Positions 22,658 through 32,707 of a stretch of 64,000 nt of DNA are shown here, in pieces. The notes beneath the pieces were generated by a model. The model had not been told where the DNA came from, ran no database searches, and was given only the letters and a program-made list of their open reading frames with translations. Position 1 is the stretch's first letter; each line of letters begins with the position of its first letter. A program made the position numbers and the translations under genes. The DNA lies in NCBI RefSeq assembly GCF_014844135.1, contig NZ_CP041403.1, positions 372,001 to 436,000 on the forward strand, written 5' to 3'. Source of the stretch: Arcobacter sp. FWKO B. Its GTDB lineage: Bacteria; Campylobacterota; Campylobacteria; Campylobacterales; Arcobacteraceae.

Positions 22658-23440
22658 ATGAAATTAGGTGTAAATATAGACCATATCGCTGTACTTAGAG
22701 AAGCTAGAAAGATTAATGATCCAAGTCCACTTGATGCAGTTGGAGTTTGCAGGCTAGCTGGGGCTGATCAAATTACTATACATTTAAGAGAAGATAGAAG
22801 ACATATTCATGACAATGATGCAAGAGATATTATTAACTCATCTTTGTTGCCAGTTAATCTTGAGTGTTCAATAAATCCAGATATTATAGATATAGTATGT
22901 GCTTTAAAACCATACAGAGCTACTCTAGTACCTGAAAATAGAAATGAAGTTACCACTGAAGGTGGACTAGATTTAGCAGGTAACTATGAAAAAATCAAAA
23001 AAGCCATAGATAAACTAAAAGCAAATGAAATTGAAGTCTCGCTTTTTATAGACCCTAGTCTTGAAGCTTGTAATTACTCAAGAATGTTAGATAGTGATTG
23101 GGTTGAATTTCACACTGGTTCATTTGCAAATATATATGCGATGCTTTATACTAATCTACGCCTTACTCATCACTGTATCAAAGAGCTTGATTTACCAAGA
23201 GCTAAGTTACATCAAATGCTTGATAGTAGTCTAGAAGATTTAAACATAGCCTCAAAAGAAGCATATAATCTTGGACTAAGAGTTGCTGCAGGTCATGGAC
23301 TAAATTATAATAATGTAACTGAGATATTACATATTAAAGAAATTACAGAATTAAATATAGGTCAAAGTATAGTTGCTAGAAGCGTATATGTTGGACTTGA
23401 AAGTGCAATAAAAGAGATGATTTTGAAGGTAAATAAATGA
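22658..23440 (+). CDS. pdxJ: Pyridoxine 5'-phosphate synthase
   Basis: 260 residues, TIM barrel. It starts MKLGVNIDHIAVLREARK, the PdxJ signature, with QITIHLREDRRHI, VNLECSI and VAAGHGLNYNN. It condenses 1-deoxyxylulose-5-phosphate with the PdxA product to give pyridoxine 5'-phosphate. The stop overlaps pdxA by 4 bases (ATGA), so the two are coupled. Confidence 0.97.
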   Translation: MKLGVNIDHIAVLREARKINDPSPLDAVGVCRLAGADQITIHLREDRRHIHDNDARDIINSSLLPVNLECSINPDIIDIVCALKPYRATLVPENRNEVTTEGGLDLAGNYEKIKKAIDKLKANEIEVSLFIDPSLEACNYSRMLDSDWVEFHTGSFANIYAMLYTNLRLTHHCIKELDLPRAKLHQMLDSSLEDLNIASKEAYNLGLRVAAGHGLNYNNVTEILHIKEITELNIGQSIVARSVYVGLESAIKEMILKVNK

Positions 23441-24363
23441 AGTATAAAATAGCTATCAGTATAGGTGATTTAAATGGCATTGGGCTTGAAATAGCAATCA
23501 AAGCTCATGAAGAAATATCTAAACTATGCGAACCAATTTATTGTATAAATGAAACTATGCTAGATAGAGGACTTAAGCTTTTAGGGGTTTCAAAACCACA
23601 AAATTTTAATATTCATCCTACAAAAGGTGAATTTGACATCAAGCCATCTAAAGTGACTAAAAAAAGTGGAAAATTCTCGTATGATTCTTTTATTGAAGCT
23701 ATTAAACTAGCTAAAAAAGGGAAAGTTGATGCCATAACAACATTACCAATAAATAAACAATCCTGGAATGAAGCAGGGATTTCTTACAAAGGGCATACTG
23801 AGGTATTAAGAGACTATTTTGGAAGAGATGCAATAATGATGCTTGGATGTGATAAAATGTTTGTTGCATTATTTACAGAGCATATCCCTTTATCAGCAGT
23901 ATGTGAAAATATCAAAACAAAAAAATTAACTCAATTCTTAATAGATTTTTACAACAATGTCAAATCAGATAAAATATGTGTACTTGGATTAAATCCCCAT
24001 TCAGGTGATGGTGGAGTGTTAGGTGATGAAGAGGTAAAAATCATCAAAGCCATCAAAGAAGCAAACAATGAACTAAATCAAAAAATTTTTTATGGTCCAG
24101 CTGTTCCTGATACTGCATTTACAAAACAAAATCGCTCCCAATATAAATACTTTGTAGCAATGTATCATGATCAAGGTTTAGCACCTCTTAAGGCTCTATA
24201 TTTTGATGAAGGGATAAATGCCAGCTTAAACCTACCTATAGTGCGTACTTCTGTAGATCATGGAACTGCTTTTGATATAGCTTATAAAACAGATAGAGAA
24301 CTAAATACAACTAGTTACATAAATGCCATCAAAGAAGCTTGTAAATTAATTAAAAACAAATGA
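23437..24363 (+). CDS. pdxA: 4-hydroxythreonine-4-phosphate dehydrogenase
   Basis: 308 residues. It starts with ISIGDLNGIGLEI, contains TTLPINKQSW, the metal-ligand YKGHTEVLRDYF and the C-terminal AMYHDQGLAPLKAL, all PdxA marks. It is the step before PdxJ in DXP-dependent vitamin B6 synthesis. It overlaps both neighbours by 4 bases. Confidence 0.97.
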   Translation: MKYKIAISIGDLNGIGLEIAIKAHEEISKLCEPIYCINETMLDRGLKLLGVSKPQNFNIHPTKGEFDIKPSKVTKKSGKFSYDSFIEAIKLAKKGKVDAITTLPINKQSWNEAGISYKGHTEVLRDYFGRDAIMMLGCDKMFVALFTEHIPLSAVCENIKTKKLTQFLIDFYNNVKSDKICVLGLNPHSGDGGVLGDEEVKIIKAIKEANNELNQKIFYGPAVPDTAFTKQNRSQYKYFVAMYHDQGLAPLKALYFDEGINASLNLPIVRTSVDHGTAFDIAYKTDRELNTTSYINAIKEACKLIKNK

Positions 24364-25378: not shown

Positions 25379-25437
25379 GGAACACCAGTCTATAACAAGG
25401 TTTGTCTTAAAGACAACCAGATAAATCTGGTGTTTCC
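25379..25437. repeat. Palindromic element unit 1 (internally deleted)
   Basis: Bounded by ggaacaccag and ctggtgtttcc in inverted orientation, 59 bases. It shares the gtttgtctt core with the following units but is shorter. It lies between the convergent genes pldA and hit. Confidence 0.75.
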
Positions 25438-25448
25438 ATTTTCTCTTT

Positions 25449-25532
25449 GGAACCCCAGTCTCGGACTGGGCTTGTCCTAATTCATTCACAAAATCTTTGT
25501 GCTTGCATTCTCTTTGAGAAATCTGGCGTTTC
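25449..25532. repeat. Palindromic element unit 2
   Basis: 84 bases from ggaaccccag to ctggcgtttc, with an inner hairpin (ccagtc...gactgg) and gcttgtcctaattcattcac. It is closely similar to unit 3. Confidence 0.85.
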
Positions 25533-25544
25533 GTTTTCTCTTTT

Positions 25545-25626
25545 GGAACCCCAGATTCATCTGGGCTTGTCTTCATTCATTCACCAGATCTTGTGCTTAC
25601 ACTCTCTTTGAGAAATCTGGCGTTCC
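25545..25626. repeat. Palindromic element unit 3
   Basis: 82 bases from ggaaccccag to ctggcgttcc. The inner hairpin ccagattcatctgg is followed by gcttgtcttcattcattcac. Its reverse complement aligns end to end with the 82-base element at 62436-62517. The tandem units occupy the whole convergent spacer and could end transcription in both directions. Confidence 0.88.
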
Positions 25627-25629
25627 AAA

Positions 25630-26124
25630 CTAATTACTAAAATATTTGTTTGCCACTTTTAAAAGCTTTTGATAAATCTCATCAAAATCCACACTATAAA
25701 CCCTAGTACCACCAATAGTAGTAATAAAATTTGTATCACCCATCCATCTAGGCACTAGGTGAAGATGTATATGCTCAGCTATACCAGCTCCTCCAACTGC
25801 ACCTAAATTCATTCCAATATTTACACCTTTTGCATTTAGTTCTTTTTTGAGCATTTCCACACCTCTTTGAGCAAAAGTAGAAATTTTCATCCACACCTTT
25901 GGATCAAGCTCTTCAAGTGCATCTGTATGAAAATGTGGGATAATCATAAAATGCCCAGGAGAATATGGATATCTATTCATAACAATAAAACAATCATTAT
26001 CTCTATACAATACACCAAGACTTTCATCATCTTGTGAATTTTTACTGATATGACAAAACACACACCCTTGTATTCTATCACCTTTTACATACTCATCCCT
26101 CCAAGGGGCATACAATTTCTGCAT
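25630..26124 (-). CDS. HIT family hydrolase / AP4A phosphorylase-like
   Basis: 164 residues. The HIT motif is HIHLHLVPRWMGD, with the first His of the triad in EHIHLHLVP, and a CVFCHI zinc-type pair lies at the N-terminus. YPYSPGHFMIIPHFH is the conserved second strand. Members hydrolyse or phosphorolyse dinucleoside polyphosphates and nucleotidyl conjugates in the cytosol. GGAG precedes the ATG. The convergent spacer to pldA is full of palindromic repeats. Confidence 0.92.
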   Translation of the reverse strand: MQKLYAPWRDEYVKGDRIQGCVFCHISKNSQDDESLGVLYRDNDCFIVMNRYPYSPGHFMIIPHFHTDALEELDPKVWMKISTFAQRGVEMLKKELNAKGVNIGMNLGAVGGAGIAEHIHLHLVPRWMGDTNFITTIGGTRVYSVDFDEIYQKLLKVANKYFSN

Positions 26125-26156
26125 AAAACTCCGTTTTTTAATTAATAATTATTAAC

Positions 26157-26179
26157 TAAAATAGGCTACGCCTATTTTA
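26157..26179 (-). terminator. Terminator of the yceI-like gene
   Basis: Perfect ten-base inverted repeat taaaataggc / gcctatttta with a three-base loop. It begins in the stop codon of the YceI-family gene, and T/A-rich sequence follows on the minus strand. Confidence 0.65.
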
Positions 26180-26767
26180 ATCTTCAATAACCACTGCTTG
26201 TATCTCTATAATCAATTTAACTTCATCACCAACAGCAACTCCACCAAATTCTAGAGCTCTATTCCAATTAAGTCCAAAATCTTTTCTATTGATTTGTCCA
26301 TCAATACTAAATCCAATTTTAGTTTTACCAGACATATCTTTTACAATACCATTTATAGTAGCATTTAATTCAACTGGCTTACTAATACCTCTAATTTCAA
26401 TATTACCTTTTAATACACCTGAACTATCTGTTTTTTTCTCATAACTATTCATAACAAACTTTATATCAGGATGTTTATCAACTTCAAAAAAATCAGCACT
26501 TCTTAAATGATCATCTCTTTTTTCTATACCAGTATCAATTGAAGCTGCCTTTACAGTAGCATCAAATTTAGTAAATTTCTTACCCTTAGTATCAAATTCG
26601 ATATCACCATCATAATCAGTAAACTTACCCTTAACATTGGTAATCATAAGATGTTTGATACTAAATCCAACCTCACTATGTCCACCATCTATAACTAACT
26701 CAGCAGCACTAACACCTAAACCAAAGGCAACAAACCCAGCAACTAATAAATTTCTTAACTTTTTCAT
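26177..26767 (-). CDS. YceI family periplasmic lipid-binding protein
   Basis: About 196 residues. The signal peptide is MKKLRNLLVAGFVAFGLGVSAAE. The mature YceI lipocalin-like barrel shows HSEVGFSIKHLMITNVKGKF, HLRSADFFEVDKHPDI and RKDFGLNWN, with the EFGGVAVGDEVKL finish. YceI proteins bind isoprenoid or quinone lipids; the exact role here is unknown. The start at 26767 places GGAGG seven bases upstream; an ATG two codons earlier would sit too close to it. Confidence 0.93.
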   Translation of the reverse strand: MKKLRNLLVAGFVAFGLGVSAAELVIDGGHSEVGFSIKHLMITNVKGKFTDYDGDIEFDTKGKKFTKFDATVKAASIDTGIEKRDDHLRSADFFEVDKHPDIKFVMNSYEKKTDSSGVLKGNIEIRGISKPVELNATINGIVKDMSGKTKIGFSIDGQINRKDFGLNWNRALEFGGVAVGDEVKLIIEIQAVVIED

Positions 26768-26833
26768 ATTCATACCTCCATAATTGTTATATCACAAGCT
26801 TAGTACAAAAGTTATTAATAATATCTTAAAGTA

Positions 26834-27982
26834 TCAAAATAGTTTTATAAGTTTTTTTAATACTTTTCTTAAGTTTTTATTTTGTGTACCAATATTTAAT
26901 CTCATAAAACCAGTACCACCTTTACCAAAACTTTCACCATTATTAAGTCCAATCTTTGCATTTAATAATCGTTGATTTATTTCATTTTGCGTAAGGTTTA
27001 AGGCTTTAAAATCAAGCCATAATAAATAAGTTGCATTAGAATCTACAACTTTAATTTTTGAATTATTTTCTTTTAAAAACTCAATTACAAAATTTTTATT
27101 TTTTTGAATATAATACAAAAAACTATCTAACCATTCTTTGCCTTGATTACAATAACTTTGTATTGCAATATTTGAAAAACTGTTTAAATGATTACAGTGC
27201 ATTTTTGATATTTCATTTTTAAAAGCTCTTAAAATATCAAAATTATAACTAAATACATATGAGGTACTTAAACCAGCTAAATTAAAAGTTTTTGAAGGTG
27301 AATTAAGTACTATTAAATGCTCTTTTAGATTATGATACTTAGCTAAAGATGTAAACTTATCAAAAACTATATCACAATGTATCTCATCACTTACAATTTT
27401 CATACCATTTTCTACAGCGATATCAGCTAACTGCATTAACTCATCTTCTGACCAAATCTTTCCTATTGGATTATGTGGTGAACAAAATAGTATAAGCTTA
27501 GTTTTTCTAGTAATAGTTTTTCTTAAATTATCAAAATCAATAGTATATTCACTACCACTATATAGTAATTCTTGATTATTTACTACTCTTTTATTCTCTT
27601 CAATAACACTAAAAAAAGGGTAATACACAGGTGAAAAAACAATAACTTCATCTCCAATATTACTAAATGCTTTTACACATGCACTTAAACTAGCTACTAC
27701 AGATGAACTAAAAAGAATATTATGTTTTTTTAATTCAATATTATTTTGAACTTTTTGCCAAAAAATTATACTTCTGTAAAACTGATCACCAATTTCTTCA
27801 TAGCCAAAGATTCCAAATTCACATTTTTTTTTAATCTTTTTTTGTAGAAATTTTGGGATTTCAAAATCCATATCAGCAACCCATAATGGATGGGTAATTT
27901 CAGATTGAAAATACCTTTTTGCACCATCATATTTTACACAATTTGTATTGTTTCTATTTTTTAATTTATCGAAATTTGCCAT
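26834..27982 (-). CDS. ovoB: PLP-dependent C-S lyase of ovothiol synthesis (OvoB-like, MalY/PatB fold)
   Basis: 382 residues, fold type I PLP enzyme of the MalY/PatB group. It shows the start HPLWVADMDFEIPKFLQ, CSPHNPIGKIWSEDEL, VSDEIHCDIVF and the PLP lysine in NSPSKTFNLAGLSTSY; RLNIGTQ is the C-terminal Arg site. It overlaps the 3' end of ovoA by 22 bases. OvoB cleaves the 5-histidylcysteine sulfoxide made by OvoA to release 5-thiohistidine. The family alone would also fit cystathionine beta-lyase; the overlap with ovoA decides the call. Confidence 0.88.
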   Translation of the reverse strand: MANFDKLKNRNNTNCVKYDGAKRYFQSEITHPLWVADMDFEIPKFLQKKIKKKCEFGIFGYEEIGDQFYRSIIFWQKVQNNIELKKHNILFSSSVVASLSACVKAFSNIGDEVIVFSPVYYPFFSVIEENKRVVNNQELLYSGSEYTIDFDNLRKTITRKTKLILFCSPHNPIGKIWSEDELMQLADIAVENGMKIVSDEIHCDIVFDKFTSLAKYHNLKEHLIVLNSPSKTFNLAGLSTSYVFSYNFDILRAFKNEISKMHCNHLNSFSNIAIQSYCNQGKEWLDSFLYYIQKNKNFVIEFLKENNSKIKVVDSNATYLLWLDFKALNLTQNEINQRLLNAKIGLNNGESFGKGGTGFMRLNIGTQNKNLRKVLKKLIKLF

Positions 27983-29826
27983 ATATAACTTTCAATATTT
28001 CTTTCATTGATATATTTTTGTACTAATTCTTGGTCAAACTCTGACTTAAATGCAAAGACTAACTTTCCATTTGGATTTAATTTCAATATTAAATCATCAA
28101 TCATATGATCAAGAGAATATATCTCATTAAAACTATTTGTAAGTATAATTAAATCATAGCCACTAAAATGTTTTTTTAAATTACAACTATCACCCTGCCA
28201 AAACTCAATATTTTCATATCTAAAAGTATCTAAGTTTTTTTGTGCAATCATTATATTTCTTGCTGTAAAATCTATCCCTGTAATAGCTATATTTTTATTT
28301 GCCTTATGAATATCAAAAACCAAACCTCCATAAAAACATCCTATATTTAAAACATTTTTAATTGTATCTAAATTTACAACTTCATTAAGCTTTAAAAATA
28401 CTTCATCATAAAATTTTTGTTCTTCTAAGACAAATGCACCTTGTTCTATTTCATGTGCATTAAGAATCAATTGTTCTACCTCAATATACCTAAATCCAGC
28501 GTGTTGAAAGAAGTGTCTTCTAAATGCATATCTTGAGCTTAATAGTACTTCATTCCCAGTACTTATCCAAGAACCACCTTTTATTATATTGTGTCTAGTG
28601 TCAAAAGTTGGCACTGAAAAATCATCATATAAAGGATGAACTTCAAAGCCAGTAAATTGATCTATAGGTGTTGTAGTCCATTGCCAAACATTTCCTATTA
28701 CATCAAAAAAATCTCCATGAGCAAATTTATCGACACTTACACTTGAACAATTATATTCTAAATTTATATTTGCAATACCTTGTAATGAGTAATCTTTGTT
28801 ATACTCTAAACCACAATATTCAGACAATCTATGCCATTGTGCTTCACTTGGTAATATTATATTTTTATTTGTTTTTTTACTTAAATATTTACAAAAAGCC
28901 TCTGCTTCTAAAAAATTCACTTCGACTGGATAAGACCATGGCATATCCACTATTTGTGTCATAGTTCTGTATTTATAATTATTACCATCTTGTACCCAAA
29001 AGTGTGGATGTTTAACTTGTTTATAATCTCTCCATCTAAGCCCTTCATCACTCCAATATTCATCATTTTCATAACCACCATCAAGTACAAAATCCATAAA
29101 TTCTTGATTACTCACTAAATATTTAGAAGCTTTAAAGTCTTCAACTTCATGCATATACGAGCCATACTCATTATCCCAGCCATAAAAATCACTCTTTTTA
29201 TCTCTACCCAATCGCACTAACGAACCTTTTACAAAAAGAAGTTCATTAATAGGAGCATTTTTATACTCAATATATTCTTTAAATATTTCACTTTTTTTGA
29301 CATACTTGATATCAAGTTGTCGATGAAGAACTGAAGATGTTTCAAGGTGTATTCGTTCATGTTCTATACCCATCAAAATAACCCACATAGGACTATCCCA
29401 ATTAATAGGAAGTGTAAAATCACAATTTTCAATATATTCTAATACTACTTGTTTAACTTTAGTTCTATATTCTTTAACTTCATTAACATCAGGCCAATTA
29501 TAATTTGAGTTATTCAAGTCATCCCAACTCATTTCATCAACACCTATTGCAAAAATTGACTCATAAGTTGGATTTACCCTATTTTGTATATATCTACCTA
29601 TTATTAATTTATTAATATAAAAAGTTGCCGTATGCCCAAAATAAAATATTAGTTTGTGTCTAAGTGGCTCAGGTTGAGTGTAATAAACACTATTATCTAC
29701 AAATATATCATAAAGCTTTTCATATAATTCATATGTTCTTAAAAAGTACTCTTTTATTTCATCTCTTTTAACTTCTATATCAGTACCATAAAGTGAAATA
29801 TTTTTTGTAAGATATTTTTTTAACAT
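27961..29826 (-). CDS. ovoA: 5-histidylcysteine sulfoxide synthase / methyltransferase (OvoA)
   Basis: About 621 residues with three domains: an N-terminal DinB-like domain with the iron ligands HX3HXE seen as GIEHERIHLETSS, a central FGE-sulfatase domain (GGSWISTGNEVLLSSRYAFR, HAGFRYIEV), and a C-terminal SAM methyltransferase (VLNIGCFYGGL, GIDFTARNI). It oxidatively couples cysteine to C5 of histidine and later N-methylates 5-thiohistidine to ovothiol. The N-terminal FYFGHTATFYINKL and FAIGVDEMSWDDLN are OvoA-specific. The ATG at 29826 is chosen because AGGA precedes it and relatives start here; the frame is open 33 codons further upstream. Confidence 0.93.
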   Translation of the reverse strand: MLKKYLTKNISLYGTDIEVKRDEIKEYFLRTYELYEKLYDIFVDNSVYYTQPEPLRHKLIFYFGHTATFYINKLIIGRYIQNRVNPTYESIFAIGVDEMSWDDLNNSNYNWPDVNEVKEYRTKVKQVVLEYIENCDFTLPINWDSPMWVILMGIEHERIHLETSSVLHRQLDIKYVKKSEIFKEYIEYKNAPINELLFVKGSLVRLGRDKKSDFYGWDNEYGSYMHEVEDFKASKYLVSNQEFMDFVLDGGYENDEYWSDEGLRWRDYKQVKHPHFWVQDGNNYKYRTMTQIVDMPWSYPVEVNFLEAEAFCKYLSKKTNKNIILPSEAQWHRLSEYCGLEYNKDYSLQGIANINLEYNCSSVSVDKFAHGDFFDVIGNVWQWTTTPIDQFTGFEVHPLYDDFSVPTFDTRHNIIKGGSWISTGNEVLLSSRYAFRRHFFQHAGFRYIEVEQLILNAHEIEQGAFVLEEQKFYDEVFLKLNEVVNLDTIKNVLNIGCFYGGLVFDIHKANKNIAITGIDFTARNIMIAQKNLDTFRYENIEFWQGDSCNLKKHFSGYDLIILTNSFNEIYSLDHMIDDLILKLNPNGKLVFAFKSEFDQELVQKYINERNIESYIWQISIN

Positions 29827-29933
29827 AACCCATCCTTTGGATTGATTATACAAAAAACTTTGTAAAGAATTCATATAATACCAACTATGATTAAAAATCT
29901 TTTTATATTTACGATCATATATCAATCTATTTT

Positions 29934-29971
29934 TATTAAGTATACATTAAATTTTGTATTAAAACTTAATA
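29934..29971. promoter_or_regulatory. Nested inverted repeats upstream of ovoA
   Basis: Outer arms TATTAAGT (29934-29941) and ACTTAATA (29964-29971) surround an imperfect palindrome, ATACATTAA/ATTTTGTAT. The site lies about 110 bases before the ovoA start and about 115 bases before the divergent degenerate GGDEF gene. It is a candidate operator, unproven. Confidence 0.35.
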
Positions 29972-30085
29972 ATAAGGCTAGTAATTTTTTAAACTAAATT
30001 TAATTTTTCTTATTGTACAATCACTTTAAGTGAGTAATAAATATATACACTTTGTTATTTAGGTATAAACTAAGGGGGATTCATT

Positions 30086-30499
30086 ATGCAAGTAGATGGT
30101 TTTAACAAATCAGTCGATCATAATATTTTTTTTAATACCTTTGAACACTATTATAAAATAGCGCTTCATAGCTGTTCTCCATTTATAATGGCAATTTGTA
30201 GGATGGATAATTTAAAAGAAGATTTTATATCCACATTTTCACAAATAGCAAAAAATAAAATTACCAAATCAGATACTATTCTTAGATTTGGAATCAATGA
30301 ATTTATTATTCTTCTATCATCTGAAAGTAATAGTCGTGGGTATGATGTATTGAACTCAATCAAAAATGAATTTTATGATGTAAACATAGGTATGCTTGAA
30401 ATAAGACCAAAATATTTTTATGAAAAAACATTAGTAGAAGACTATTTAACAATTGCTTCAAAAAAAATTGAAGTTGCAAAAAAGTACACCAATCATTAG
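30086..30499 (+). CDS. Degenerate GGDEF-like protein
   Basis: 137 residues. The pattern RFGINEFIILLSS at the position and context of RxGGDEFxxLL, followed by NSIKNEFYDVNIGMLEIRP and the terminal KKIEVAKKYTN helix (cf. ALYxAK), indicates a GGDEF fold in which GGDEF has become GINEF. The substrate-binding and catalytic glycines and an aspartate are lost, so diguanylate cyclase activity is unlikely; a GTP or c-di-GMP sensing or purely structural role is possible. The domain is slightly short at its start. A strong AAGGGGG site precedes the ATG. It converges on the methyltransferase gene with a 4-base overlap of ends. Confidence 0.6.
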   Translation: MQVDGFNKSVDHNIFFNTFEHYYKIALHSCSPFIMAICRMDNLKEDFISTFSQIAKNKITKSDTILRFGINEFIILLSSESNSRGYDVLNSIKNEFYDVNIGMLEIRPKYFYEKTLVEDYLTIASKKIEVAKKYTNH

Positions 30500-31245
30500 A
30501 TTTTAAATACAACAACACCTTTTTGGGCATTTGTAGTAAATTTTATTTTATTATCTTTAATTTTAGCTAGTAAAATATTTTCTACTACTTTTACATCTGG
30601 CTCTACACCAAATCTTTCAAGGTGAGAAATTGCATAGTCTAATGCATCCTCAAATATATAACTATCACTCCATGATGTTTGAAAATATTTTACATCATGT
30701 TTAATATTTACAGCTTTTAAATAATCAGTAAATCTTTGTGTCTGACCAAAAGTTTTATTTTTTAAAGTATTATGTTTTTTAAGTAATTCATCTATAATAT
30801 CATTGTTCTTAAAATCACCCCAACCAACAAAAATACCATATGTTAAAGTTGAATTTATAAACTTACTTATTTGTTCTTGCGAAGATACAGCTGGTGTCAT
30901 GGAAGCTAAAGAAATATCATATTTATCTTTTATGATAAAATCATCCCAACTTGTATGAAAAATATCAATTTTATCTTCTAAATTAAGAGTTTCCTTGTCA
31001 TATTCAAAAATATCCAACATAGGTTTTGATAAATCCAAAGCAGTTATTTTGGATGCTCTTGATGCCAAAGGGATAGCTAAAGTTCCAGTTCCACACCCAA
31101 TATCAAGTATATTCTTACCCTCAAAATCAACACCAAAATCCTCAGCCACACCAAAAATAAACCTAGCATCACTTTGTATAGACTCATCTGTATATCTAGG
31201 GTATCTTGAAGCTAATTTGTCCCAATAACTATTTGGAAGTTCCAT
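30496..31245 (-). CDS. Class I SAM-dependent methyltransferase
   Basis: About 249 residues. Motif I, ILDIGCGTGTLAIPLA, is near residue 45, an acidic strand-2 end is seen in ALDLSKPML, and the DxxSLASMTPAV region follows. The start at 31245 (MELPNSYWDKLA) has AAGGGG five bases before it and avoids overlap with murF; an upstream extension by 15 codons is less likely. It is the last gene of the ruvA-ddl-hydrolase-murF operon. Substrate unknown (small molecule or cofactor). Confidence 0.85.
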   Translation of the reverse strand: MELPNSYWDKLASRYPRYTDESIQSDARFIFGVAEDFGVDFEGKNILDIGCGTGTLAIPLASRASKITALDLSKPMLDIFEYDKETLNLEDKIDIFHTSWDDFIIKDKYDISLASMTPAVSSQEQISKFINSTLTYGIFVGWGDFKNNDIIDELLKKHNTLKNKTFGQTQRFTDYLKAVNIKHDVKYFQTSWSDSYIFEDALDYAISHLERFGVEPDVKVVENILLAKIKDNKIKFTTNAQKGVVVFKI

Positions 31246-31261
31246 ATTACCCCTTAAATAA

Positions 31262-32707
31262 CTAAATGAAATTCGGTGCATCATTTGCAAACAAAATCAA
31301 ATCACCAATATGTGTATACTCAGCTAAAGTTGACTCAAGCTCTTTTTTATTTTTCAAAAAAATTACCTGTTTTGCTTTTATTTCTTTTTCAAAAATCTTT
31401 TTATTTAGATCACCTGTTATAATAATCAAATCAAAAACTTTTTCTATTGCTTTGGCTAATACAATATTTGCAGCTTCAGTTGATTCTACAATCCCTGGAG
31501 TTACTATTACTTTTCTTCCATTATGAGTTGAAGCTAGATTTACCCCTTCTAGCATCCCATCAAGATTGCCATTGAAAGAGTCATCAAGTATTATCTTTCC
31601 ACCAGCTTTTATTAACTCTAATCTATGAGAAACTGGCTTAAGCTCACTAAGCGAAAGTTTTATTTCATCTATACTCATTCCAAGCTCATATGCAACTAAT
31701 ATTACAGCTGTAAGATTAATAGCATTAAAACTTCCTAAAATTGGTGCATAAAAATGCTCTATATTACCACCAACTTCTAAATCAAACCATATACCATCAA
31801 GATTACTCATCGTAATATGTAGACTATCAGGAAATTTTCTAATATTTGGGTAATCTAATATTGGTACAGATTCATGAACAAATCCAACTTGTAATCTTGG
31901 TGAATTTAACAATTCCATTTTAGTATATATAATATTATCAAGTGTTTTAAAATACTCAATATGTTGCTCTCCAACACTTCCAATTACGGCTATTTGAGGC
32001 TCTAAAAATCTTGTGATTTCATCAATATCACCTTTTGCCCTTGCTCCAGCTTCAGCAATATATACTTGCGTGTCTAATGGTAAATCATCATTTACATCTT
32101 TTAGTATTCCAGCCATAGTATTTACACTTCTTGGTGTCATATAAGTAATATATTTCTTACTCAATACTTGGTTAAGATAGTTTTTGATTGATGTTTTACC
32201 AAATGAAGCTGTAATTGCAACAATTTTAGTATCTTTAAATGTTTGTAGCCTTTTTTTTGCTTTATCTTTAAATGATAAAAACATCACTTTTTCCAAAGCA
32301 AAAGATATAATATAAGTTAAAATAAGTGGCAATACAACTCCATGATTAGAACATCCTTGAGTTGCAAGACATAAAACTATTAAACAAATAGTAACAACAA
32401 ACAAAATAGCTAAAAATCTCAATACCCTCTTTGTCAAAACTAAGGGTCTATCTAATCTTTTATTCCATAATACAAAACTTGTTAAGTACAATAAATAAAA
32501 ATATATTGCAAAATAAGTAAAATCAAGCAAATAATAAAGTACAAAAGGGGTAGCAAAATATAATATATGCCAATGTGGTTTATGATGTTTTAAAATTACT
32601 CTTTCTATTTGGTAATTATACCACTGTAAATTTGTAATTAAATACCAACCAAGACTTAGTACCAAAATAAAATATGTGAATATTTGAAAAATATCAATCC
32701 AATCCAT
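31262..32707 (-). CDS. murF: Mur ligase family protein, membrane-anchored MurF
   Basis: About 481 residues. The first 150 residues hold several hydrophobic helices (FTYFILVLSLGWYLI, FATPFVLYYLLDF, FLAILFVVTICLIVL), a feature of epsilonproteobacterial MurF. The Mur ligase part has the ATP loop ITASFGKTSIKN (cf. GTNGKT/S), EAGARAKGDI, GSVGEQHIEYF and the DDSFNGN segment. It adds D-Ala-D-Ala to UDP-MurNAc-tripeptide. It sits in one operon with ddl, which makes that dipeptide. The ATG at 32707 has AGGA seven bases upstream and overlaps the hydrolase stop. Confidence 0.9.
   Translation of the reverse strand: MDWIDIFQIFTYFILVLSLGWYLITNLQWYNYQIERVILKHHKPHWHILYFATPFVLYYLLDFTYFAIYFYLLYLTSFVLWNKRLDRPLVLTKRVLRFLAILFVVTICLIVLCLATQGCSNHGVVLPLILTYIISFALEKVMFLSFKDKAKKRLQTFKDTKIVAITASFGKTSIKNYLNQVLSKKYITYMTPRSVNTMAGILKDVNDDLPLDTQVYIAEAGARAKGDIDEITRFLEPQIAVIGSVGEQHIEYFKTLDNIIYTKMELLNSPRLQVGFVHESVPILDYPNIRKFPDSLHITMSNLDGIWFDLEVGGNIEHFYAPILGSFNAINLTAVILVAYELGMSIDEIKLSLSELKPVSHRLELIKAGGKIILDDSFNGNLDGMLEGVNLASTHNGRKVIVTPGIVESTEAANIVLAKAIEKVFDLIIITGDLNKKIFEKEIKAKQVIFLKNKKELESTLAEYTHIGDLILFANDAPNFI

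What the first reader, a model, noticed from the sequence alone, without database searches (positions are those of the whole stretch)
26834..29826. Ovothiol biosynthesis operon ovoA-ovoB in a Campylobacterota genome
OvoA has the HX3HXE iron site and a C-terminal methyltransferase; the PLP lyase overlaps it by 22 bases. Together they should make ovothiol A, a redox thiol. The overlap makes the lyase assignment much firmer than sequence family alone. Nested inverted repeats upstream (29934-29971) suggest regulation.
Basis: partly seen in the sequence, partly recalled or inferred. Interest (0 to 1): 0.5.

Follow-up and report, generated by a model that had tools for sequence, protein, structure and literature searches.

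The report
Ovothiol enzyme with stripped-down methyltransferase
A bacterium related to Arcobacter carries the two genes that put sulfur onto histidine, but the part that should add the final methyl group has lost most of its conserved outer pieces, so it probably makes 5-thiohistidine instead of ovothiol.

Summary
The ovoA-ovoB operon is real: ovoA 27961-29826 (-), ovoB 26834-27982 (-), 22 bases shared. OvoA's N-terminal sulfoxide synthase looks intact. Most of the SAM-binding core survives; most conserved segments outside it are gone. The single-contig genome holds no OvoM over cut-off. Seven surveyed genomes of the window's family carry this mini form; two of them have a separate, full OvoM. 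Of 119 Campylobacterota genomes with OvoA (397 sampled), 16 have no OvoM domain over cut-off; reduced or missing MT domains arose several times. Best reading: OvoA plus OvoB make 5-thiohistidine, and the last step to ovothiol A is not done by this protein. In relatives the mini domain is under purifying selection (dN/dS 0.17-0.24), so a new role or residual activity is open. Campylobacterota OvoA and OvoM already have solved structures, and MT-less OvoA is reported elsewhere, so this is a new variant of a known kind. The upstream inverted repeat is weakly supported.

The parts
27961..29826 (-). ovoA, 621 aa, variant with a miniaturised C-terminal methyltransferase domain
   Evidence: ORF and SD-like AAAGGA at 29833-29838; TIGR04344 652.9 bits
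28486..29826 (-). OvoA residues 1-447: DinB-like plus FGE-sulfatase-like sulfoxide synthase
   Evidence: PF12867, PF03781; full-length model: 8khq Z 54.8, EgtB-IV Z 48.8
29341..29361 (-). HERIHLE = HX3HXE, H156 and H160 (iron-ligand role recalled); third His is H65 at 29632-29634
   Evidence: sequence; invariant in alignments A3 and A5
28627..28629 (-). Y400, which I take for the recalled active-site tyrosine of OvoA enzymes
   Evidence: invariant in A5
27964..28485 (-). mini methyltransferase domain, OvoA residues 448-621: most of the SAM core kept, flanking conserved segments mostly lost
28255..28272 (-). DFTARN (residues 519-524); its D, F, T and N are the same in 9 of 9 mini rows, T and N differing from canonical S and F
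28174..28197 (-). QGDSCNLK (residues 544-551), retained from OvoM-type MTs
26834..27982 (-). ovoB, PatB-family PLP-dependent C-S lyase, 382 aa, K231 at 27290-27292 as PLP lysine (by motif, recalled)
   Evidence: TIGR04350 417.1 bits; nearest solved sequence 6qp3 PatB; only one of four hits over cut-off in the genome
27961..27982 (-). 22-base overlap of the ovoA 3' end and the ovoB 5' end
29934..29971 (.). nested AT-rich inverted repeat claimed as regulatory; present but weakly supported

Best explanation
ovoA-ovoB is a two-gene operon for 5-thiohistidine. The OvoA N-terminal non-haem iron domain joins cysteine sulfur to C5 of histidine as a sulfoxide, and the overlapping PLP lyase OvoB cleaves it to 5-thiohistidine (both steps inferred from family membership). 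The C-terminal domain is a miniaturised relic of the OvoM-type Npi-methyltransferase: it keeps most of the SAM-binding core but has lost the mid insert, the C-terminal SPYTW...WLGG...RKFQH segments and the conserved residues of the N-terminal cap that canonical OvoA and standalone OvoM share (shown). It therefore most likely does not turn 5-thiohistidine into ovothiol A (inferred). As the single-contig genome has no OvoM over cut-off, the likely end product is 5-thiohistidine or an unknown derivative of it. The mini domain persists as a SAM-binding or structural appendage (inferred; purifying selection shown in relatives).
For: MT domain under the family cut-off, N domain well over it. 21 of 65 positions that are at least 90% conserved in 65 canonical MTs are kept in the window, 25-32 in the 8 other mini rows, 56-61 in 4 standalone OvoMs. 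16 of those columns are deleted in 9 of 9 mini rows; 14 of the 16 are unchanged in all 4 OvoMs. The acidic residue of motif I is N, not D, in 9 of 9. No OvoM over cut-off in the single-contig genome. Of 7 surveyed mini genomes, 2 (G027, G019) carry a separate complete OvoM. MT/N divergence ratio about 2.3-2.6 in mini pairs against 1.0-1.3 in canonical pairs. In one family, canonical, degenerate and MT-less OvoA share gene neighbours, so MT was lost in place. Change between canonical and reduced forms recurs: at least 7 times by starred branches of a quick tree. MT-less OvoA with a competing fate for 5-thiohistidine is reported (PMC12631010, parts 1 and 2 of 3 read).
Against: Most core positions are unchanged in 9 of 9 mini rows (G62, C63, G66, G81, D83, F84, F132, Q134, D136, C138, N139, L140, K141, D148, Y160, G177). 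dN/dS of the mini domain is 0.17-0.24 in five pairs of relatives, so the domain does something there; the window itself is too diverged to be tested. The predicted fold is a class I MT (mean pLDDT 86.8; Z 15.2 to the MT part of 8khq, 14.7 to OvoM 9bxm). A smaller acceptor pocket, or one shared with the N domain, could still methylate 5-thiohistidine. An unrelated MT elsewhere could do the step. No metabolite data.
Confidence: 0.6

Rival explanations
1. The mini-MT is an active, economised Npi-methyltransferase; the operon makes ovothiol A.
For: Most SAM-core positions intact in 9 of 9 rows; purifying selection in relatives; class I MT fold in the model.
Against: 16 conserved columns outside the core deleted in 9 of 9 and the motif I acid changed to N; 2 of 7 mini genomes have a separate OvoM; faster divergence.
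Confidence: 0.18
2. The mini-MT has been repurposed: its clade-specific residues define a new SAM-dependent activity (another acceptor or position) or a SAM/SAH-sensing module that tunes the sulfoxide synthase. This does not exclude 5-thiohistidine as the product of the pair.
For: Shared changes against canonical MTs: D60N, S85T, F88N and R158E in 9 of 9 mini rows; dN/dS 0.17-0.24 in relatives.
Against: Faster divergence is also what partial loss of constraint gives; other lineages dropped the domain altogether.
Confidence: 0.15
3. A non-homologous methyltransferase elsewhere in the genome completes ovothiol A.
For: The genome has other class I MTs, one of them 30496-31290 near ovoA.
Against: That gene has no counterpart in the other loci compared, and no ORF cluster apart from OvoA and OvoB is shared by all mini loci (clusters were not searched against family libraries).
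Confidence: 0.07
4. The enzyme is an EgtB-IV-like ergothioneine sulfoxide synthase, not OvoA.
For: EgtB-IV is the second closest fold (Z 48.8); its solved chains hold no MT domain.
Against: 627 bits to OvoA_Th2 against 350 to EgtB-IV; TIGR04344 over cut-off; no EgtD-type family (PF10017) over cut-off in the genome.
Confidence: 0.02

Closest known systems
OvoA_Th2 (PDB 8khq), bifunctional OvoA; three stretches printed match locus L002 of a genome of the same order letter for letter
   Same: Same N-terminal sulfoxide synthase, same order of domains, 46% identity over 608 aligned residues
   Different: Its MT domain is canonical; the window's is about 80 residues shorter and lacks most conserved segments outside the SAM core
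OvoM from Sulfuricurvum sp. (PDB 9bxl, 9bxm, 9bxn), standalone 5-thiohistidine N-methyltransferase
   Same: Same fold as the mini domain (9bxm Z 14.7, 162 aligned)
   Different: OvoM is a separate full-size enzyme; the window genome has none over cut-off
Truncated OvoA without MT module, co-encoded with some 5-thiohistidine N-acetyltransferases (PMC12631010; mostly Bacteroidota)
   Same: OvoA without a complete Npi-methylation module
   Different: There the module is missing; here a mini version remains, and none of the neighbouring proteins scanned is an acetyltransferase
EgtB-IV (PDB 8vig, 8vih, 8vii, 8vik, 8vil)
   Same: Fold of the N-terminal domain
   Different: Ergothioneine enzyme by its titles, no MT domain in the solved chains, about half the bit score

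Membership tests
OvoA (5-histidylcysteine sulfoxide synthase) | N-terminal domain over the curated cut-off of TIGR04344 | tested here: met
   652.9 bits against 400
OvoA (5-histidylcysteine sulfoxide synthase) | Three-His iron site including HX3HXE | tested here: met
   H65, H156, H160 and E162, invariant over 30 OvoAs; ligand role recalled
OvoA (5-histidylcysteine sulfoxide synthase) | C5-selective coupling of cysteine and histidine | not testable with these tools
   needs an enzyme assay
OvoM / OvoA C-terminal Npi-methyltransferase | TIGR04345 over its curated cut-off | tested here: not met
   68 bits against 170 for the protein; best stretch 48.2 bits in the genome search
OvoM / OvoA C-terminal Npi-methyltransferase | Class I MT fold | tested here: met
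   model pLDDT 86.8; Z 15.2 to 8khq, 14.7 to 9bxm, but up to 16.8 to other MTs
OvoM / OvoA C-terminal Npi-methyltransferase | SAM-core positions conserved in canonical OvoA | tested here: inconclusive
   most kept in 9 of 9 mini rows, but motif I D60 is N and F88 is N in 9 of 9
OvoM / OvoA C-terminal Npi-methyltransferase | Conserved segments outside the SAM core shared by canonical OvoA and standalone OvoM | tested here: not met
   16 such columns deleted in 9 of 9 mini rows, 14 of them unchanged in all 4 OvoMs; cap columns 14-37 keep 1-2 of 7
OvoM / OvoA C-terminal Npi-methyltransferase | Methylation of 5-thiohistidine | not testable with these tools
   needs an enzyme assay
OvoB (PatB-family C-S lyase) | PatB family over cut-off with PLP lysine | tested here: met
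   417.1 bits against 340; K231 in SPSKTF
OvoB (PatB-family C-S lyase) | Linkage to ovoA | tested here: met
   33 of 43 loci (9 of 9 mini, 8 of 8 MT-less, 13 of 18 canonical, 3 of 8 degenerate); but 1 of 17 canonical loci of the window's own family
OvoB (PatB-family C-S lyase) | Cleavage of the histidine-cysteine sulfoxide | not testable with these tools
   needs an enzyme assay
EgtB-IV ergothioneine synthase | Closer to EgtB-IV than to OvoA, with an EgtD partner in the genome | tested here: not met
   350 against 627 bits; PF10017 best 19.8 bits against cut-off 23

The most novel reading that the evidence does not exclude
In one Arcobacteraceae-type lineage the OvoA methyltransferase was cut down to a bare SAM-binding module and repurposed, either as a SAM/SAH sensor of the sulfoxide synthase or as a new modifying enzyme, so these bacteria use 5-thiohistidine or a new derivative of it, not ovothiol A, as their redox thiol.
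Probability: 0.15. Interest if true: 0.65.

Novelty: new variant of a known kind. Interest (0 to 1): 0.42.

Why it matters
A genome with an ovoA gene is easily counted as an ovothiol producer. The reduced or missing methyltransferase domains found here in Campylobacterota would make that wrong for a share of them (16 of 119 sampled OvoA genomes have no OvoM domain over cut-off). They offer natural experiments on why the Npi-methyl group matters, and a short list of genomes in which 5-thiohistidine itself may be the working thiol.

Tried and rejected
Upstream inverted repeats as a regulator: simple 8-bp repeats are as frequent in 407 of 1000 shuffles, nested ones in 53 of 1000. A window-wide search of the 8-bp outer arms found one exact and one two-mismatch site, where 0.24 are expected and 2 of 100 shuffles have as many. 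Suggestive at most. No Rfam family reaches its gathering score in 26000-31000. No terminator-like site and 23 promoter-like sites against 27.0 in shuffles in 26600-30200.

EgtB-IV / ergothioneine: rejected on score and on the lack of an EgtD-type family over cut-off. Acetyltransferase partner: the GNAT family PF00583 rings in 9 of 9 genomes tried and in all 14 controls, so it says nothing; 5THNAT itself was not tested.

The 22-base overlap as something special: ovoA-ovoB adjacency is common in canonical loci of other families too, so it supports the pairing but is ordinary; in canonical loci of the window's own family it is rare (1 of 17).

One origin of the mini form: not resolved by the N-domain trees. 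The careful tree needs two changes, and none of 200 bootstrap trees needs one, but one clade is not rejected (p-AU 0.289; 0.474 on the quick tree). The MT tree gives one clade at 99, with a long-branch warning. I lean on the shared deletions and residues.

Limits. G119 was put into by mistake (confused with locus L119). In the count of 103 genomes with an OvoM domain over cut-off, G332 and G374 (231-residue C-termini, just over cut-off) and G416 (internal deletion) are included although I call them reduced. Five reduced forms (L118, L119, L120, L123, L124) each rest on one genome and may include assembly errors. L117 is 'mini' by length but is treated as degenerate elsewhere; the mini clade of nine rows excludes it. 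dN/dS pairs share members and do not include the window, which is too diverged. The papers PMC10696552 and PMC12068934 are not held, so contacts in OvoA_Th2 and OvoM were not read; that the lost segments face the methyl acceptor is general knowledge of class I MTs, not a result. Papers: ten searches. One paper holds both 'ovothiol' and 'campylobacter', the latter only in a cited title on broiler chickens (passages seen); none holds 'ovothiol' and 'Sulfuricurvum'.

Full report
What is there. The window lies at 372001-436000 of a single-contig genome of 2.24 Mb, 99.99% complete. On the minus strand, ovoA (27961-29826, 621 aa) and ovoB (26834-27982, 382 aa) share 22 bases. The ovoA ATG at 29826 has AAAGGA six bases upstream; the longer ORF to 29925 starts at TTG and is not needed. 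Neighbours are a YceI protein, a HIT protein and phospholipase A1 on one side, and a GGDEF-like ORF (under cut-off), a small methyltransferase and a MurF-like protein (under cut-off) on the other.

The first two steps look canonical. The OvoA N-terminal half scores 652.9 bits on TIGR04344 (cut-off 400) and the lyase 417.1 on TIGR04350 (cut-off 340). H65, H156, H160, E162 and Y400 are in place and invariant in an alignment of 30 OvoAs. The closest solved sequence is OvoA_Th2, 8khq; the full-length model (mean pLDDT 82.7) aligns to it over 608 residues with Z 54.8 but rmsd 13.6, so the two domains are placed differently or the model is unsure there. OvoB is the one PatB-family protein over cut-off in the genome. 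It sits next to ovoA in 33 of 43 loci compared, but in only 1 of 17 canonical loci of the window's own family.

The methyltransferase domain is not canonical. It gets 68 bits on TIGR04345 (cut-off 170). After Y447 it has 174 residues; 65 canonical rows have 246-277. An alignment with eight canonical domains shows losses in the N-terminal YETDxxxSQYxxFHYG cap, in an insert after motif II, and in the C-terminal SPYTW...TPKxxWLGG...FVIRETxRKFQH part; the last W is kept. Of 65 columns at least 90% conserved in the 65 canonical MTs, the window keeps 21, the 8 other mini rows 25-32, ten degenerate rows 27-47 and four standalone OvoMs 56-61. Sixteen columns are deleted in 9 of 9 mini rows; 14 of these are unchanged in all four OvoMs. 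Most SAM-core positions are kept in 9 of 9, but the motif I acid is changed (D60N), and S85T, F88N and R158E are also changed in 9 of 9. A model of the mini domain (178 residues from G444, mean pLDDT 86.8) is a class I methyltransferase fold, Z 15.2 to 8khq residues 462-686 and 14.7 to OvoM 9bxm; other methyltransferases score up to 16.8, so this shows the fold, not the function.

It is not an isolated error. The mini form is in seven surveyed genomes of the window's family (G000, G008, G010, G019, G025, G027, G036) and in two further named MAG loci, L032 and L033. Loci L031, L034 and L035 lie on contigs of the same length as those of G025, G008 and G010. Record titles include Arcobacteraceae bacterium and Arcobacter sp.; L031 and L032 are titled Desulfosporosinus and Helicobacter pylori, which I take to be mislabelled MAGs. 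In relatives the domain is under purifying selection: dN/dS 0.24, 0.22, 0.24, 0.22 and 0.17 in five mini pairs (the last near saturation), against 0.21, 0.11, 0.12, 0.17 and not computable for the N domain. The window is too diverged for this test and is in no pair. Relative to the N domain the mini domain diverges faster (corrected ratio about 2.3-2.6) than canonical MTs (about 1.0-1.3).

Reduction and loss recur in the phylum. Of 397 sampled Campylobacterota genomes, 119 have the OvoA N domain over cut-off and 103 have an OvoM domain over cut-off. All 103 are among the 119, and the 16 without are: four mini (G000, G008, G010, G025), six degenerate (G386, G404, G256, G219, G364, G107) and six with no MT domain (G387, G176, G413, G367, G341, G337). 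In one genus of family f16, 8 genomes have lost the domain (C-termini of 3-27 residues) and a ninth has a degenerate one. ORF clusters 2 and 3 follow ovoB in 6 of 8 MT-less, 2 of 8 degenerate and 3 of 18 canonical loci, so the MT was lost in place. A quick N-domain tree needs 10 changes between canonical and reduced forms, 7 of them forced by starred branches; counts do not give direction.

Separate OvoM. Of 36 relevant genomes searched (37 with G119, added by mistake), two mini ones (G027, and G019, 74% complete) and two MT-less ones (G414, G218) carry a full OvoM apart from OvoA. The mini pair's OvoMs are nearest to the MT domains of canonical OvoA of their own family, the MT-less pair's to Sulfurovum-like and related MTs. 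In G027 and G019 the mini domain therefore need not be the OvoM. The window genome has none; its best OvoM hit is the mini domain itself at 48.2 bits.

Reading. OvoA and OvoB should make 5-thiohistidine (inferred from families). The final Npi-methylation is probably not done by this protein (inferred from lost segments, faster divergence and separate OvoMs). The end product is then 5-thiohistidine or an unknown derivative. Against this stand the mostly intact SAM core and the purifying selection in relatives, which keep residual activity or a new role open.

Comparison with what is known. 8khq stretches match a genome of this order letter for letter; from memory, 8khq is from Hydrogenimonas thermophila. 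The OvoM structures 9bxl-9bxn are from Sulfuricurvum, a member of this phylum by recall. OvoA lacking the MT module, co-encoded with some 5-thiohistidine N-acetyltransferases, is reported (PMC12631010, parts 1 and 2 of 3 read). So the pathway in this phylum is not new. I saw no account of the mini form in the ten paper searches listed under Tried and rejected, which cover open-licence papers only.

Regulation. The nested inverted repeat is real but close to chance in DNA of 20% G+C, and no RNA family reaches its gathering score.

Noticed in passing
L153:3977-5818 and L154:3965-5813: In two genomes whose OvoA has no MT domain, OvoM is fused to (L153) or directly follows (L154) a protein that looks like an ADP-ribosylglycohydrolase, next to dnaX-, murI- and rho-like genes (named by eye, no family search).
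   Followed up: partly
window 25420-25624: Imperfect direct repeats of 32-39 nt with a period of about 95 bases in the stretch between the phospholipase A1 and HIT genes.
   Followed up: no
window 22658-24363: Two ORFs that look like pdxJ and pdxA (PLP synthesis; recognised by eye, no family search) lie about 2.5 kb from the PLP-dependent OvoB gene; probably coincidence.
   Followed up: no
G105:C1:1074543-1074917: An OvoM fragment with an in-frame TAG in a genome without an OvoA match, a likely decayed remnant.
   Followed up: no
L031 and L032: Record titles name Desulfosporosinus and Helicobacter pylori, but the OvoA loci fit Arcobacteraceae-type mini forms; the MAG labels look wrong.
   Followed up: no
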